DNA of 64,000 nt, taken from Chloroflexus sp. GTDB lineage: Bacteria > Chloroflexota > Anaerolineae > Anaerolineales > Villigracilaceae. Of the stretch, positions 57,253-63,376 are shown piece by piece; position 1 is the stretch's first letter, and each line of letters starts with the position of its first letter. The translations under genes and the position numbers were made by a program. Location: the NCBI GenBank assembly GCA_020723995.1, contig DYHT01000001.1, forward strand, positions 62,001 through 126,000. Reading direction: 5' to 3'. The notes beneath the pieces are model-generated. The model had not been told where the DNA came from. It did not search any database and saw nothing but the letters and a program-made list of their open reading frames with translations.

Positions 57253-58317
57253 ATGAAACTCGGAATTATCGGTCTGCCCCAATCTGGAAAGACGACCATC
57301 TTCAACGCCCTGACGCGCGGCCACACGCCGACGACCGCCAGCGCCGGGCGGATTGAAGTCCACACTGCCGTGGTGGATGTTCCCGACCCGCGCGTGGATA
57401 CGCTCTCGACCATGTTCAAGCTGAAGAAGACCATCTACGCCAAAGTCACGTATGCCGACATCGCCGGACTGGAAGGCGGCGGCGATAAATCCGGCATCTC
57501 CGGCACGCTGCTCAATCAACTGGCGCAGATGGACGGCTTCCTGCACGTGGTGCGCTGCTTCGCCGATGAGAACGTTCCGCACCCCTCTGGCAACGTGGAC
57601 GCGGCGCGTGACGCCGCGGCGATGGAATCCGAACTGCTCCTGAACGACCTGATTGCCGTCGAGCGCAAACTGGAACGCCTGATCGAGGAACGCAAAAAGG
57701 GTGGCACAGATAAAGTTCTCAACGAGCGCCAGACGGCCCTTTTCACCCGTCTGCATGCCGAACTCTCCGCTGAAAAGCCATTGCGCGCAGTGGAAATCTC
57801 CGTCGAGGAAGAAAAGCATCTGTCCGGCTTCGGCCTGCTGACTCGCAAGCCGCTGCTGATTTTGCTCAATCTGGGCGAAGGCCAGCCCGCGCCGGAGATC
57901 AAGTTAACCCATCCCTGCCCGGTCGTGGAATTGCAGGGCAAATTGGAAATGGAGATTGCCCAGCTCGCGCCGGAAGACGCAACCGTTTTCATGCAGGAAT
58001 ATGGCATTGCAGAGCCGTCGCTCAACCGAATGATTAAGATTTCCTACGAATTGCTCAACTTGCAATCCTTCTTCACCGTCGGCGAGGACGAGGTGCGCGC
58101 CTGGACGATCAAATGCGGCGCCAATGCTTACGTGGCGGCGGGCGAAATCCACACCGATTTGCAGAAAGGCTTTATCCGCGCCGAAGTCTGCGCCTACCAG
58201 GACTTGATTGACTTGGGCGGCCTCTCGGAAGCGCGCGGCAAAGGTAAACTCAGGCTGGAGGGCAAAGAATATATTGTGCAGGATGGAGAGATTGTGCATA
58301 TCCGGTTTAATGTGTGA
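57253..58317 (+). CDS. ychF: Redox-regulated ATPase/GTPase YchF (OLA1-like)
   Basis: This 354-residue protein is of the Obg-related family. It begins MKLGIIGLPQSGKTTIFNALTRGHTPTTAS (P-loop), has VDVPDPRVDTLSTMFKLKKTIYAKVTYADIAGLEGG (G3-like), a coiled-coil helical insert, and a C-terminal TGS domain: SLNRMIKISYELLNLQSFFTVGEDEVRAWTIKCGANAYVAAGEIHTDLQKGFIRAEV. YchF prefers ATP over GTP and binds ribosomes. The NKxD motif is replaced (LLILLNLGEGQ), as expected. ATG 57253 is fixed by the P-loop strand. The restriction-modification island begins 6 nt after its stop. Confidence 0.93.
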   Translation: MKLGIIGLPQSGKTTIFNALTRGHTPTTASAGRIEVHTAVVDVPDPRVDTLSTMFKLKKTIYAKVTYADIAGLEGGGDKSGISGTLLNQLAQMDGFLHVVRCFADENVPHPSGNVDAARDAAAMESELLLNDLIAVERKLERLIEERKKGGTDKVLNERQTALFTRLHAELSAEKPLRAVEISVEEEKHLSGFGLLTRKPLLILLNLGEGQPAPEIKLTHPCPVVELQGKLEMEIAQLAPEDATVFMQEYGIAEPSLNRMIKISYELLNLQSFFTVGEDEVRAWTIKCGANAYVAAGEIHTDLQKGFIRAEVCAYQDLIDLGGLSEARGKGKLRLEGKEYIVQDGEIVHIRFNV

Positions 58318-58323
58318 TTCAGA

Positions 58324-59973
58324 ATGGTTGAATATCTAACAAGAGCAAATTTTATTCAGGGATTAAGGCAATCGCCGAATGATTCGGTGGATGCTGTTGT
58401 TTTCGTTACCGGCGCGATAACGCCGTTTGATTTTAATGAAGTTCGACAATGCCTTGATGAAAGTGTTCGTGTGCTTAAGAGTGGCGGATTATTTTTTATC
58501 CATGGATCCCCCACATACTTACCAGAATTGGGTGTCTATTTGGACCAACGACTAACCTTCAAATATTGGATTGCTATAAAGTCACTAGAACAACAAAATA
58601 CAGGTGGTTTGCCATCTGTTCATGCCGCAGTGCTCCTATTTGTAAAAGAGATTGGCAATTTCCAAATTAATCGCCTGCGTTTTCCTCATGAATATTGTTC
58701 CCATTGTGGAAAAACGCTTCGTGACTGGGGTGGAAAGGCCCATCTAATGGATCCAGAGGGTTTTGCAGCGTCTGATGTTTGGACCAGCCTCCCACTAGAA
58801 GATAATTATGTACAACTCTCTGAACCTGCATTATGCGCCATCATAAAGATGGTTGTTAGTGACACGATTATTGTTGGCCCAACTGAGGATGTAAAAACTT
58901 CCCGAACATCCATCAGTGAACCTACATATCAGTATTACTTGCCCCAATTTGGCCCCAAAATCAGTTGCCCAAGAGAATCGCAAATCCTTGAAGATAGTCT
59001 GTGGAATGTTGTCCATCACGGTGATGCGATAGAAATACTCAAACGCTACCCTGATAATTCAGTTGATTTAGTGTTTGCGGATCCACCCTATAATCTTTCC
59101 AAAGGTTACAGCGTTTATAATGATGCTCAAAGCCGCGATGAATACTTATCATGGTGTAATTCGTGGCTAGAGGAATATATTCGCATTTTGAAACCGACTG
59201 GCGCATTGTATCTGCTTAACTTGCCGCGTTGGACAATGTATCACGCAGCCTATTTAAACAAACGCCTGTATTTTAAAAACTGGATTGTCTGGGATGCTCT
59301 TTCGGAACCGAGAGGAAAGATTATGCCCGCTCACTATGGGTTACTGTTTTATACAAAGCACCCATCAAAATTCATATTCAACCAAGAAGAAATAAGAGAG
59401 ATTGACTTGCGCCAATATTGCTTGCGCGCATCCTGTATTCGTGAGCGGAAAGCTCTAGGCGAAGACAAGAAAGATACCCTTACTGATATATGGTCAGATA
59501 TCCATCGTCTAAAGCACAGGCGAGATCGCGATTACCATCCTTGTCAACTTCCTGATGCCTTGATGGAACGTATAATTCGTTTATCAACCAACGAGGGGGG
59601 CATTGTACTTGACGCCTTGGCCGGGACAGGCACCACAGCAATTGTTGCGAAGCGACTGGGACGCCGTTATGTTGCTATAGATATAGATGATGCCTATGTT
59701 CGTATTATTCGGGAAAAATTGGAACAAATAGAAGACTTAGGTTATGTGCAACGGCAAAGTACAAAAAGGCCGCGACCACAATACAGCAAAAAAAGCTTGC
59801 AGTTGGAGTTACTTAATCTTGCTGCGAAGTTAGGGCGGCTGCCCACGCCTGAAGATGTACAAAAAATGAGTTCATACAGTGTGGATGTTTACCTCGAAAC
59901 ATTCCCAACCTGGGGTAAAGCATTAAAAGCTGCCAAATTGGAGGTGAGAAAAAATGGCAACACAGGCGCGTAA
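58324..59973 (+). CDS. DNA methyltransferase with duplicated, partly degenerate MTase fold
   Basis: In this 549-residue amino-methyltransferase the second half (residues about 230-480) is complete: VVHHGDAIEILKRYPDNSVDLVFADPPYNLSKGY (DPPY), YIRILKPTGALYLLNLPRW, and IVLDALAGTGTTAIVAKRLGRRYVAIDID (SAM site), in the beta-class order. Residues about 20-115 (SVDAVVFVTGAITPFDF, VRVLKSGGLFFIHGSPTYL, YLDQRLTFKYWIAIKSL) look like a decayed copy without DPPY. Residues around 120-140 contain CSHCGK. The C-terminus (LQLELLNLAAKLGRLPTPEDV... FPTWGKALKAAKLE) resembles homing-endonuclease-associated DNA-binding repeats. The gene is AT-rich compared with its neighbours. Confidence 0.88.
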   Translation: MVEYLTRANFIQGLRQSPNDSVDAVVFVTGAITPFDFNEVRQCLDESVRVLKSGGLFFIHGSPTYLPELGVYLDQRLTFKYWIAIKSLEQQNTGGLPSVHAAVLLFVKEIGNFQINRLRFPHEYCSHCGKTLRDWGGKAHLMDPEGFAASDVWTSLPLEDNYVQLSEPALCAIIKMVVSDTIIVGPTEDVKTSRTSISEPTYQYYLPQFGPKISCPRESQILEDSLWNVVHHGDAIEILKRYPDNSVDLVFADPPYNLSKGYSVYNDAQSRDEYLSWCNSWLEEYIRILKPTGALYLLNLPRWTMYHAAYLNKRLYFKNWIVWDALSEPRGKIMPAHYGLLFYTKHPSKFIFNQEEIREIDLRQYCLRASCIRERKALGEDKKDTLTDIWSDIHRLKHRRDRDYHPCQLPDALMERIIRLSTNEGGIVLDALAGTGTTAIVAKRLGRRYVAIDIDDAYVRIIREKLEQIEDLGYVQRQSTKRPRPQYSKKSLQLELLNLAAKLGRLPTPEDVQKMSSYSVDVYLETFPTWGKALKAAKLEVRKNGNTGA

Positions 59974-60414
59974 AACTTCTTTCGATGAGGCAAGGATACA
60001 AAGTAGAAAATCTGATAAGGCAAGAATTGGCAAAGATACAATCTCACCATGGTATACCGTTTGGAAAAGGTCGTTCCCGAATTATTGATACGGACATTGA
60101 TTTTGCAGTTCCCAATGTGGAGGACCCATGGATGATTATCATGAGTTCTTTCCAAGAAACAACGAGCAGCGGCCAAACAACCAAAGCCCGCGATATGCTT
60201 TCTGCAATACTTGCGCGTGCTTGAGCACAATAGCCGCAATAGAGAAAACCGTTCTTTTATCCACTTTGTTGATGGTGGCGGCTGGTTGGCCCGTAAGCGT
60301 GATCTAGCACGATTAGTAGATCAATGCCATTACTTCGTCAATTTGCAGAATCTCGACATGTTGGAGGCAATAGTACTAAAACATGTTCCGGCAAAATATA
60401 AGCACGCTATGTAA
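59954..60414 (+). pseudogene. Restriction endonuclease gene broken by frameshifts
   Basis: Three overlapping frames carry parts of one protein. ATG 59954 (MATQARKTSFDE) overlaps the methyltransferase end. A second frame holds GYKVENLIRQELAKIQSHHG, RSRIIDTDIDFAVPNVEDPWMIIMSSFQETTSSGQTTKARDM (59985-60224). A third gives LRVLEHNSRNRENRSFIHFVDGGGWLARKRDLARLVDQCHYFVNL to 60414. The DIDF...SSFQETTSSGQTTKA region suggests a PD-(D/E)xK-type nuclease. At least one frameshift near 60200 and one near the N-terminus inactivate it, leaving the methyltransferase solitary. Confidence 0.7.
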
Positions 60415-60457: not shown

Positions 60458-61441
60458 ATGTCTACCAAAGCTCGTTATAGTCTGACCGTATTCACTGCGG
60501 CGATCATCTTTACCCTGCTGGCTTGCAGCCTGCCATCATCAACCCCCACGGAGAGCGACCCCACCAAAGTGGCGATGCAGGTGCAGCTCACCATGCAGGC
60601 CATCCAGAATGCCACGCTGGTGGCGCAGGCAGCCCAGGCCGGCCAGGCGACCCAAGAAGTGCAGCCGCTGCCAACCTATACACTCTTGCCCACCTACACA
60701 CCGCAGCAAGTCAATACACTCGCCGCCCCTACCGCAATCCTTGTCACGCCCACGCAGAGCCTGGATGAGCGCATGAAATCCGCCAAAATTCTGGTTTACG
60801 AAGATACCTACCTGACCAATCATGGCCCCTGGGTTAAGGATACGCTTGACATGATGGGGTTGAATTATAAGTATGATGCTGACGCATTGGGGCATTTTAT
60901 GGGCGACTTGAATTCGAGTACACCCTGGGACCTGATCATCGTGGCGGCCGAGAGTAGAGACTCTGTCCAGGGAGAATTCTGGGATGTCATCGCACCTAAA
61001 GTGATCAATGATAAGACCGCGCTGATCGTCGAGATGTGGTACCTTTCCGATACGGCTAACGGGCGCATCAGGTCGCTGACAGACCCATGCGGTATTGCCT
61101 TCCAGGCTGTTCGGAAAGATGTGGATTCCATCTATACCCTGGATCCGAAGCATCCTGTCTTTTCTACACCCAACAGCGGATTCTCATTAATCCACTATAG
61201 TCCTGTTTGGTTTGATAAAGGAGGAGACTATATCCGGCTGACATCGGGCAGCAAAGCTACCTTGCTGGCCGGCGGTTATCCCAAGGAAAAATCGAGCTAC
61301 GGCCTGATCGCGACTTGCTTCGATGGCCGCGTCATCTTCCAGACCTTCTCCAATCACGACTATAAACGCAGCGATATTCTGATGCTCTGGCAAAATTACA
61401 TTACCAATACCCTTCAGAAGCATTTTGAGGCCGTCCCTTAA
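60458..61441 (+). CDS. Hypothetical lipoprotein with a Rossmann-like extracellular domain
   Basis: This 327-residue protein has the signal MSTKARYSLTVFTAAIIFTLLACSLPS (lipobox LLAC) and a Gln/Thr/Pro-rich spacer (about 35-105). The folded domain begins KSAKILVYEDTYLTNHGPWVKDTLDMMGLNYKYD and includes WDLIIVAAESRDSVQGEFWDVIAPKV and GLIATCFDGRVIFQTFSNHDY. The alternation of strands and helices and the surface-DxD-like positions resemble ThuA/glutamine-amidotransferase-like domains, but no catalytic set is clear. AAGGAGG precedes ATG 60458. The GC content is back to that of the bulk genome, so it lies outside the restriction-modification island. Confidence 0.65.
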   Translation: MSTKARYSLTVFTAAIIFTLLACSLPSSTPTESDPTKVAMQVQLTMQAIQNATLVAQAAQAGQATQEVQPLPTYTLLPTYTPQQVNTLAAPTAILVTPTQSLDERMKSAKILVYEDTYLTNHGPWVKDTLDMMGLNYKYDADALGHFMGDLNSSTPWDLIIVAAESRDSVQGEFWDVIAPKVINDKTALIVEMWYLSDTANGRIRSLTDPCGIAFQAVRKDVDSIYTLDPKHPVFSTPNSGFSLIHYSPVWFDKGGDYIRLTSGSKATLLAGGYPKEKSSYGLIATCFDGRVIFQTFSNHDYKRSDILMLWQNYITNTLQKHFEAVP

Positions 61442-61570: not shown

Positions 61571-63376
61571 ATGATGCTCTTCACCCAATCTACCTGGAGT
61601 CTCATCGACCTCTTCCCCGACCTCGACGCGCCGGAACTGGAAGCCGCCTTCAAAACGCTCGAAGCGCGAGTCGCCGATTTTGAGAAAATCCGCCCGCAAC
61701 TCAAGCCGGATATTGCCACATCGAACTTCCTCGAAATCGTCAAAGATTCCGAAGAATCGGCACACCTGGCGCACAAACTGCACGCCTTCGCCGGCCTGTC
61801 CTTCACCGCCGACACCCAGAACCAGGTCATCCAGACGCTGATGGGCCGCGTCCAGCAGTTTATGGCCGAACTCGAAAACCGCACCCTGTTTTTCAGCCTG
61901 TGGTGGAAAGACCTGGATGAGGCCAACGCCAAACGCCTGATGGACGCCTCCGGCGATTACCACTATTACCTCGAAGAGATGCGTCACTTCAAGCCGCACA
62001 CCTTGACCGAACCGGAAGAAAAGATCGTCAACCTGAAGAACGTCACCGGTGTGCAGGCGCTGGTCACGCTCTACGACGCCATCACCAACCGTTATGCTTT
62101 CAAACTGGAAGTGGACGGCGAGACGAAAGAACTGACCCGCGGCGAACTGATGGTCCACGTGCGCGGCGCGGACCCGGAGCTGCGGGCGAAAGCCTACCAG
62201 GAACTGTACCGCGTCTACAGCACGGACGGCGCCATCCTCGGCCAGATGTACCAAACCCTCGTCCGCGACTGGCGCAACGAAAACCTGACCCTGCGCAAGT
62301 TCGCCAGTCCGATTGCGGTGCGCAACTTGGGCAACGACATCCCCGACGAGGCGGTTGATACGCTCCTGAAGATGTGCCAGAAGAACGCGCCCATCTTCCA
62401 GCGTTATTTCAGGTTGAAGGCGAAACACATCGGCATGAAACGCCTGCGCCGTTATGATGTGTACGCGCCGGTAGTGAAATCCGATAGAACTTACAAATTC
62501 GGCAAGGCAACCGAAATGGTGCTGGATACATTCAGCGCCTTCCATCCCGATTTCGGTAAACATGCCCGGCGAGTCTTCGCCGAGAACCATCTCGATAGCG
62601 AAGTGCGCAAGGGAAAGCAATCCGGCGCGTTCTGCTGGGGCGTCGTCCCGGAGATAACGCCATGGGTCAAGCTCAACTACCAGTCGCGCGCCGACGACGT
62701 GGCGACCATGGCGCACGAACTCGGTCACGCCATCCACGCCATGCTGGCCGCCCATCACAGCGTCTTCACCTTCCACTCCTCCCTGCCGCTGGCGGAGACC
62801 GCCTCCACCTTCGGCGAGATGATGCTGGTGGACAAACTACTGGCCGAAGAGAGCGACGAATCGGTGCGGCGTGACATGCTTTTCCGCCAGGTGGACGACT
62901 CTTATGCCACCATCCTGCGCCAGGCCTACTTTGCCCTCTTCGAGCGCCAGGCGCACGAGATGGTGGTCAACAACGCTCCAGTGGACGAACTGACCGCGGC
63001 CTACATGAAGCATCTAAGCGATCAGTTTGGCGACGCAGTGGAAGTCAGCGACGAATTCAAATGGGAGTGGATTTCCATCCCACACATCTACCACACCCCC
63101 TTCTACGTCTATGCTTACGCCTTCGGGCAGTTGCTGGTGCTATCGCTTTACAAGCAATACAAAGCAGAAGGCGAGGCCTTCAAGCCGCGCTATCTCAAGA
63201 TTTTGTCCGCAGGAGGCTCGCAGGCCCCGGCCAAGATTCTGGGTGACGCGGGTATAGACATCCGCTCTGAGAAATTCTGGCAGGGCGGGTTTGATGTAAT
63301 TAGTGCTTTGGTAGATGAACTGGAGAAATTGCCGGTGAAAGCGGGGTGGAGGCACGACGTAAAGCGTAATGCGTAA
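61571..63376 (+). CDS. M3-family oligoendopeptidase (PepF-like)
   Basis: This 601-residue zinc peptidase starts MMLFTQSTWSLIDLFPDLD. The N-terminal helical part is followed by the M3 catalytic region: WVKLNYQSRADDVATMAHELGHAIHAMLAAHHSVFTFHSSLPLAETASTFGEM. Here HELGH gives the two zinc His and Glu, and a downstream Glu in AETAST is the third ligand. Such enzymes cleave short peptides in the cytoplasm. CAGGAG lies 6 nt before ATG 61571. The final codons (VKRNA, stop) fall in an inverted repeat that makes a hairpin at 63358-63390. Confidence 0.9.
   Translation: MMLFTQSTWSLIDLFPDLDAPELEAAFKTLEARVADFEKIRPQLKPDIATSNFLEIVKDSEESAHLAHKLHAFAGLSFTADTQNQVIQTLMGRVQQFMAELENRTLFFSLWWKDLDEANAKRLMDASGDYHYYLEEMRHFKPHTLTEPEEKIVNLKNVTGVQALVTLYDAITNRYAFKLEVDGETKELTRGELMVHVRGADPELRAKAYQELYRVYSTDGAILGQMYQTLVRDWRNENLTLRKFASPIAVRNLGNDIPDEAVDTLLKMCQKNAPIFQRYFRLKAKHIGMKRLRRYDVYAPVVKSDRTYKFGKATEMVLDTFSAFHPDFGKHARRVFAENHLDSEVRKGKQSGAFCWGVVPEITPWVKLNYQSRADDVATMAHELGHAIHAMLAAHHSVFTFHSSLPLAETASTFGEMMLVDKLLAEESDESVRRDMLFRQVDDSYATILRQAYFALFERQAHEMVVNNAPVDELTAAYMKHLSDQFGDAVEVSDEFKWEWISIPHIYHTPFYVYAYAFGQLLVLSLYKQYKAEGEAFKPRYLKILSAGGSQAPAKILGDAGIDIRSEKFWQGGFDVISALVDELEKLPVKAGWRHDVKRNA

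What the first reader, a model, noticed from the sequence alone, without database searches (positions are those of the whole stretch)
58324..60414. AT-rich restriction-modification island with a solitary methyltransferase
The methyltransferase is intact and has an apparent internal duplication: an N-terminal half resembling a decayed MTase (no DPPY) and a complete second half, plus CSHCGK and a homing-endonuclease-associated DNA-binding tail. The following nuclease gene is split over three frames. Base composition differs from both flanks, implying recent transfer. The degenerate N-terminal half may serve as specificity or dimer module.
Basis: partly seen in the sequence, partly recalled or inferred. 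Interest (0 to 1): 0.6.

Follow-up and report, generated by a model that had tools for sequence, protein, structure and literature searches.

The report
Two-half DNA methyltransferase with dead half
A bacterial DNA-marking enzyme consists of two fused copies of the same fold, one apparently kept only to read DNA and one to methylate it; this layout is ancient and still under selection, while the DNA-cutting partner gene beside it has been destroyed in this genome.

Summary
The finding is real and sharper than stated. ORF 58324-59973 (549 aa) is a tandem beta-class amino-methyltransferase. Its C-half has catalytic motif IV (DPPY) and SAM motif I; its N-half has the same fold but neither motif. 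This is not recent decay: 30 tandem proteins, mostly Chloroflexota, share the layout. Single-domain relatives, some beside DpnII-type or BamHI nucleases, carry DPPF, motif I and a CxxC...D(Y/W)GG module in one domain. In tandem proteins these are split: D(Y/W)GG only in the N-half, DPPY only in the C-half (30/30 each). Both halves are under purifying selection. Best explanation: a single-chain pseudo-dimer in which the N-half recognises DNA and the C-half methylates, fixing in one chain the division of labour seen in the EcoP15I homodimer. The recognition role is inferred. The downstream DpnII-type nuclease is dead: about 160 codons are deleted and the frame changes twice, so read correction would not restore it. 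The gene is AT-rich, but so are all 16 relatives measured, so composition does not show recent transfer. The system sits in a conserved ychF-pepF interval, where another Anaerolineales genome has an intact copy. Target sequence and activity are unknown.

The parts
58324..59973 (+). Tandem beta-class amino-methyltransferase, 549 aa
   Evidence: ORF; Pfam; 25 relatives, most matched over the full length
58324..58989 (+). N-half (residues 1-222): beta-class MTase fold without motif IV DPPY or SAM motif I
   Evidence: hhalign; AF2 model and PDB comparison; motif counts; dN/dS 0.169
58678..58782 (+). R-x2-H-x2-CxxC...DWGGKxHLMxPxG...SDVW module of the N-half (residues 119-153), in the target-recognition position; proposed DNA-reading element
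   Evidence: Invariant R119, H122, C125, C128, D134-K138, H140, L141, P144, G146, S150-V152; aligned with the single-domain family
58999..59733 (+). C-half (residues 226-470): catalytic domain with DPPYNL, PAHY, RDRDYHPCQLP and LDALAGTGTT
   Evidence: Pfam PF01555; MboIIA Z 25.8; dN/dS of residues about 227-356 is 0.042
59416..59451 (+). YCLRASCIRERK (residues 365-376): stands in the C-half where single-domain relatives have CxxC...DYGGK
   Evidence: Invariant Y365, C366, R368, C371, R375, K376; alignment
59782..59943 (+). C-terminal tail (residues 487-540), HNH_repeat / homing-endonuclease-associated repeat, putative DNA binding
   Evidence: PF18780 E 9.4e-10; also in L040
59954..60414 (+). 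Nuclease pseudogene, DpnII-type: first 13 codons 59954-59992, then a stretch in another frame within 59982-60209, then a third frame 60211-60414; about 160 internal codons deleted
   Evidence: (PF04556 E 1.6e-5 on the last piece)
57253..58317 (+). ychF-like GTPase (354 aa), upstream flank of the insertion site
   Evidence: gene name from the writer's own knowledge of the YchF family
60458..61441 (+). Lipoprotein-like ORF (327 aa, no Pfam match), downstream flank; follows ychF directly in some relatives without the system
61571..63376 (+). pepF-like M3 peptidase, outer flank of the conserved interval
   Evidence: gene name from the writer's own knowledge

Best explanation
A solitary remnant of a type II restriction-modification system whose methyltransferase is a single-chain pseudo-dimer. 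An ancestral single-domain beta-class MTase, probably acting as a homodimer, was duplicated in tandem. The copies then lost complementary parts: the N-half lost catalytic DPPY and SAM-binding motif I but kept the CxxC...D(Y/W)GGK element in the target-recognition position; the C-half kept catalysis and replaced that element with a different conserved YCxRxxCxxxRK stretch. Proposed mechanism: the N-half and the HNH_repeat tail read and hold the DNA, the C-half flips and methylates the base (adenine-N6 or cytosine-N4, undecided), and the two halves pack as in beta-class dimers, so that the division of labour found in EcoP15I is fixed in one chain. In this genome the partner DpnII-type nuclease has been deleted, so the MTase remains as an orphan. 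Shown here: homology and shared fold of the halves, complementary motif split, conservation, purifying selection, nuclease deletion, insertion site. Inferred: DNA recognition by the N-half, intramolecular pairing, enzymatic activity, target site.
For: Halves homologous and co-linear, probability 98-99% against at most 1.8% in shuffles. N-half alone is predicted as a beta-class MTase fold. 30 of 30 tandem proteins have D(Y/W)GG only in the N-half and DPPY only in the C-half; G.GTT in 0/30 N-halves and 28/28 complete C-halves; all three in the one domain of 27/27 single-domain relatives. Single-domain relatives sit beside DpnII-type (L041) or BamHI (L122, L123) nucleases. C-halves form one clade (100/98*), N-halves one clade (100/99*), N+C sisterhood not rejected (AU p 0.199). 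Archaeal L033 branches first among C-halves and first in the window-type N clade, and its nuclease is 66% identical to that of single-domain L041 with the same gene order, which links the two forms. Purifying selection on both halves, dN/dS 0.17 and 0.04. Precedents: in EcoP15I one Mod subunit recognises DNA and the other methylates (PMC4490356); structurally characterised beta-class MTases can form dimers (PMC6787082).
Against: The N-half could be only structural. The tandem set was classified partly by the motifs counted, so 0/30 for DPPY in N-halves is partly by construction; the informative point is that no tandem with catalytic motifs in both halves turned up. N-halves sit on long branches, so their exact placement is unsure. 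Same-genus L020 has a truncated MTase, so the whole system may be decaying in this genus.
Confidence: 0.65

Rival explanations
1. The N-half is a structural or regulatory domain: it stabilises the C-half, or blocks homodimerisation, without reading DNA. The C-half's own YCxRxxCxxxRK stretch and the HNH_repeat tail do the recognition.
For: The C-half keeps its own strongly conserved stretch at the recognition position (Y365, C366, R368, C371, R375, K376 invariant). The N-half evolves faster (dN/dS 0.169 against 0.042).
Against: Conservation in the N-half is concentrated in the CxxC...DWGGKxHLMxPxG...SDV element (17 of the 29 invariant columns lie in residues 119-152), and that element is shared with enzymes in which it occupies the recognition position.
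Confidence: 0.25
2. Fusion of two different MTases of the same broad family (an M1-M2 pair) rather than duplication of one gene, followed by loss of catalysis in one.
For: In the 70-row tree N-halves group with the BamHI-type single-domain clade and C-halves with the L041-type clade (96/83* and 96/93*).
Against: N-halves are on a branch over one change per column long and share the D(Y/W)GG columns that C-halves lost, which pulls them to rows bearing D(Y/W)GG; in the 34-row tree the grouping is different and N+C sisterhood is not rejected (AU p 0.199). The functional reading is the same either way.
Confidence: 0.25
3. Recent, ongoing decay: two adjacent MTase genes fused lately and the N-terminal one is a pseudogene on its way out.
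For: No catalytic motifs in the N-half; the neighbouring nuclease is a pseudogene; same-genus L020 has a truncated MTase.
Against: The same layout at 52-61% identity across many Chloroflexota genomes and at 39% in an archaeal record; N-halves form one clade; dN/dS 0.17 in the N-half.
Confidence: 0.03
4. The nuclease frame changes are assembly errors and the restriction system is functional.
For: The genome is an 82-contig draft, where single-base errors occur.
Against: Besides the frame changes, about 160 residues after residue 13 of the nuclease are absent; small indel errors cannot explain that.
Confidence: 0.03

Closest known systems
Single-domain beta-class MTases beside BamHI or DpnII-type nucleases (L122, L123, L041); the BamHI-associated ones are presumably orthologues of M.BamHI (cytosine-N4)
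   Same: Same catalytic core, same CxxC...D(Y/W)GG module in the recognition position, same kind of genomic partner
   Different: One domain carries catalysis and the module together; no degenerate second half. The M.BamHI link rests on the neighbouring BamHI nuclease and on the writer's own knowledge, not on a comparison with the M.BamHI sequence
EcoP15I Mod2 (type III)
   Same: Beta-class MTase pair in which one subunit recognises DNA and the other methylates (PMC4490356)
   Different: Two identical, catalytically complete chains; here the asymmetry lies in one chain and one half lacks the catalytic motifs. EcoP15I is part of a complex with a Res subunit
CcrM, MboIIA, M.BceJIV (solved beta-class DNA MTases)
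   Same: Best structural matches of both halves; CcrM is a dimer with a C-terminal DNA-binding domain (PMC6787082)
   Different: One MTase domain per chain, no degenerate second MTase domain
METTL3-METTL14 and MTA1-MTA9
   Same: Pairs of beta-class-type MTase domains; METTL14 has EPPL in place of DPPY (PMC4490356). That METTL14 and MTA9 are inactive is the writer's own knowledge
   Different: Separate polypeptides in eukaryotes, acting on RNA or DNA; no restriction partner
BanI-associated tandem MTase (L040) and viral L042
   Same: Same tandem architecture and motif split; L040 also has the HNH_repeat tail
   Different: L040's partner nuclease is a clear BanI (PF24447, E 6.5e-116) instead of DpnII-type; its N- and C-halves form a separate deep branch with L042

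Membership tests
Beta-class amino DNA methyltransferase (PF01555) | Motif IV (D/N/S)PP(Y/F), then recognition region, then motif X and SAM motif I (C-half) | tested here: met
   DPPYNL at 253, LDALAGTGTT at 428; PF01555 183 bits against cut-off 26.7; MboIIA Z 25.8, rmsd 4.9, 224 aligned
Beta-class amino DNA methyltransferase (PF01555) | The same motifs in the N-half | tested here: not met
   No DPPY-like motif and no G.GTT in the N-half of 30/30 tandem proteins, though the fold matches
Beta-class amino DNA methyltransferase (PF01555) | Methylates DNA | not testable with these tools
   Needs expression and a methylome
DpnII-type restriction-modification system | Adjacent nuclease of the DpnII family (PF04556) | tested here: met
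   Remnant at 60211-60411 gives 24.8 bits against cut-off 23; intact relatives 24-30 bits. The match is weak and these nucleases are divergent
DpnII-type restriction-modification system | Intact nuclease | tested here: not met
   About 160 residues deleted and frames broken
DpnII-type restriction-modification system | GATC specificity | not testable with these tools
   GATC count in the window is 0.68 of a Markov expectation, but AGCT, CTAG and TTAA are lower still; not informative
Single-domain CxxC-D(Y/W)GG MTase family (M.BamHI-like) | Catalytic motif and D(Y/W)GG module in one domain | tested here: not met
   27/27 single-domain relatives have both in one domain; 30/30 tandem proteins split them
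Division-of-labour MTase pair (works like EcoP15I Mod2 or METTL3-METTL14) | Two homologous MTase-fold domains, one without catalytic motifs | tested here: met
Division-of-labour MTase pair (works like EcoP15I Mod2 or METTL3-METTL14) | The domains pack as the beta-class dimer and the inactive one contacts nucleic acid | not testable with these tools
   Model coordinates not available; full-length pTM 0.73 is compatible but no proof
HNH_repeat (PF18780) | C-terminal repeat above the Pfam cut-off | tested here: met
   39.1 bits against 26

The most novel reading that the evidence does not exclude
A prokaryotic restriction-modification MTase that arose from a homodimer by tandem duplication and complementary loss, giving a single chain with a recognition-only pseudo-methyltransferase half and a catalysis-only half: a bacterial one-polypeptide counterpart of METTL3-METTL14, spread through Chloroflexota and paired with either DpnII-type or BanI nucleases.
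Probability: 0.5. Interest if true: 0.65.

Novelty: new variant of a known kind. Interest (0 to 1): 0.52.

Why it matters
In beta-class methyltransferases one subunit of a dimer can read the DNA while the other methylates, but in homodimers the two roles are hard to separate by experiment because every mutation hits both subunits. Here evolution seems to have separated the roles within one chain, and single-domain relatives survive for comparison. That makes the division-of-labour idea directly testable by point mutations in either half, and gives a natural case of how a METTL3-METTL14-like asymmetry can arise. It is also a clear example of a restriction-modification system that has lost its nuclease while the methyltransferase stays intact.

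Tried and rejected
Recent transfer from composition: rejected, because the MTase is more AT-rich than its flanks in all 16 relatives measured. Sequencing error in the nuclease: rejected because of the large deletion. Searches of phage and plasmid records gave only single-domain or partial relatives. A first synteny search used an off-by-one frame for ychF and orf352 and was discarded, then redone. Published descriptions of a tandem beta-class MTase with an inactive half were sought and not found; that library is incomplete, so absence is no proof of novelty, and REBASE could not be consulted. The structure comparison lists only what Foldseek ranked; families absent there are not excluded. A four-cysteine metal site shared by the two halves (C125, C128, C366, C371) was considered; most close viral single-domain relatives lack the CxxC pair and nothing here tests it.

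Full report
What is there. The window lies in contig C6 of a 2.1 Mb, 82-contig draft genome whose relatives are Chloroflexota (Anaerolineae and kin) by the titles of matching records. The ORF at 58324-59973 encodes 549 aa. Pfam finds an N6_N4_Mtase domain at 247-463 (183 bits, cut-off 26.7) and a HNH_repeat at 487-540. The C-half has DPPYNL (253) and LDALAGTGTT (428). GC is 0.43 for the gene and GC3 0.375, against GC3 of 0.72-0.77 for neighbouring genes.

The two halves. Profiles of residues 1-222 and 226-486, built from 22 family members, align co-linearly with probability 98.8%; a repeat run gave 98.2% (E 3e-14) against at most 1.8% for 40 column-shuffled controls and 0.6% for the reversed profile. 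AlphaFold2 of the N-half alone (mean pLDDT 73, pTM 0.71) has as best solved matches MboIIA (Z 14.6, rmsd 3.5, 155 aligned), M.BceJIV and CcrM (both Z 14.3); the entries listed are beta-class or METTL3/MTA1-type MTases. The full-length model's C-half matches MboIIA at Z 25.8, rmsd 4.9, 224 aligned. The region of the DWGGK element has pLDDT under 50 in both models.

The layout is old. A scan of 84,980 species genomes found 25 loci, mostly titled Chloroflexi or Anaerolineae, plus a Chloroherpetonaceae and a Methanoperedens record, most of them matched over the full length at 52-61% identity, 39% for Methanoperedens. In an even sample of 400 genomes of the phylum 8 had a strong match, so the system is patchy. 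Invariant residues are numerous in both halves. Against the same-genus relative L020, dN/dS is 0.169 in the N-half and 0.042 in the aligned part of the C-half, about residues 227-356.

Where it came from. One Chloroflexota relative, L041, is a single-domain 323-aa MTase next to an intact DpnII-type nuclease, and plasmid relatives L122 and L123 are single-domain MTases next to BamHI nucleases. These have DPPF, motif I and CxxC...DYGG in one domain. Across 57 proteins with the module, 27 are single-domain with all motifs, and 30 are tandem with D(Y/W)GG only in the N-half and DPPY only in the C-half. The tandem class was defined partly by these motifs, so the fair statement is that no tandem with catalytic motifs in both halves was found. 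In the C-half the module is replaced by an invariant YCxRxxC...RK stretch rather than simply deleted.

Trees. In the 34-row tree C-halves form one clade (100/98) next to L041-type single domains, and N-halves one clade (100/99) on a long branch; joining N and C is not rejected (AU p 0.199). In the 70-row tree the N-halves group with the BamHI-type single domains instead, so duplication of one gene and fusion of two related genes are not fully separated. The archaeal tandem L033 branches first among C-halves and first in the window-type N clade; its nuclease is 66% identical to L041's, with the nuclease upstream of the MTase in both. This links the single-domain and tandem forms. A second tandem lineage, L040 and viral L042, shares the motif split; L040's partner is a BanI nuclease, E 6.5e-116.

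The nuclease. Intact relatives are about 310-330 aa and overlap the MTase end. The window keeps the first 13 residues, lacks about 160, and resumes in two further frames to the end. This is a deletion, not only a frame error. Among the 25 loci no nuclease is found near the MTase in L009, L012, L016, L025 and L028 either (in L020, L029 and L030 the contig ends at or soon after the MTase), so orphan tandem MTases recur.

Site. In relatives without the system ychF is followed by orf352 and pepF (L222, L230), or by pepF directly (for example L223, L227, L231). The window has ychF, MTase, nuclease remnant, orf352, pepF. L013, another Anaerolineales genome, has ychF, MTase, intact nuclease, pepF. 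L020 of the same genus has a truncated MTase and a rearranged orf352 fragment at this place. The low GC of the gene is a family trait: it is below the flanks in 16 of 16 relatives.

Mechanism. EcoP15I shows that in a beta-class dimer one subunit can supply recognition and the other catalysis (PMC4490356), and structurally characterised beta-class MTases can form dimers (PMC6787082). The N-half kept the element in the recognition position and lost catalysis; the C-half kept catalysis. The simplest reading is a fused pseudo-dimer with fixed roles. That the N-half touches DNA, that the halves pack as a dimer, that the enzyme is active, and what it recognises, are inferred and untested. The weak DpnII-family match of the nuclease makes GATC a guess only.

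Verdict. The thing is a new variant of a known kind.

Noticed in passing
L040:17-865 and 829-2697: A tandem MTase of the same type sits next to a BanI nuclease (PF24447, E 6.5e-116). BanI's known partner is a cytosine-C5 MTase (writer's knowledge), so the partner seems to have been exchanged.
   Followed up: partly
L020:4551-6101: Same-genus relative with the MTase cut at about residue 357 and a C-terminal orf352 fragment placed upstream of it: the region has been rearranged.
   Followed up: partly
60458-61441: Lipoprotein-like ORF with no Pfam match, found between ychF and pepF in some relatives (L222, L230); function unknown.
   Followed up: no
L135-L154, L156 (viral contigs): Many single-domain relatives at 56-70% identity to L041, on contigs classed as viral; most lack the CxxC cysteines, and the two read in full (L135, L150) keep DYGGK.
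   Followed up: partly
L033:3869-6575: Candidatus Methanoperedens record with a tandem MTase and an L041-type nuclease upstream: an apparent intermediate between the two forms.
   Followed up: partly
59954-59973: The nuclease remnant's start codon overlaps the MTase end by 20 bases, as in many relatives: a formerly overlapping gene pair.
   Followed up: no
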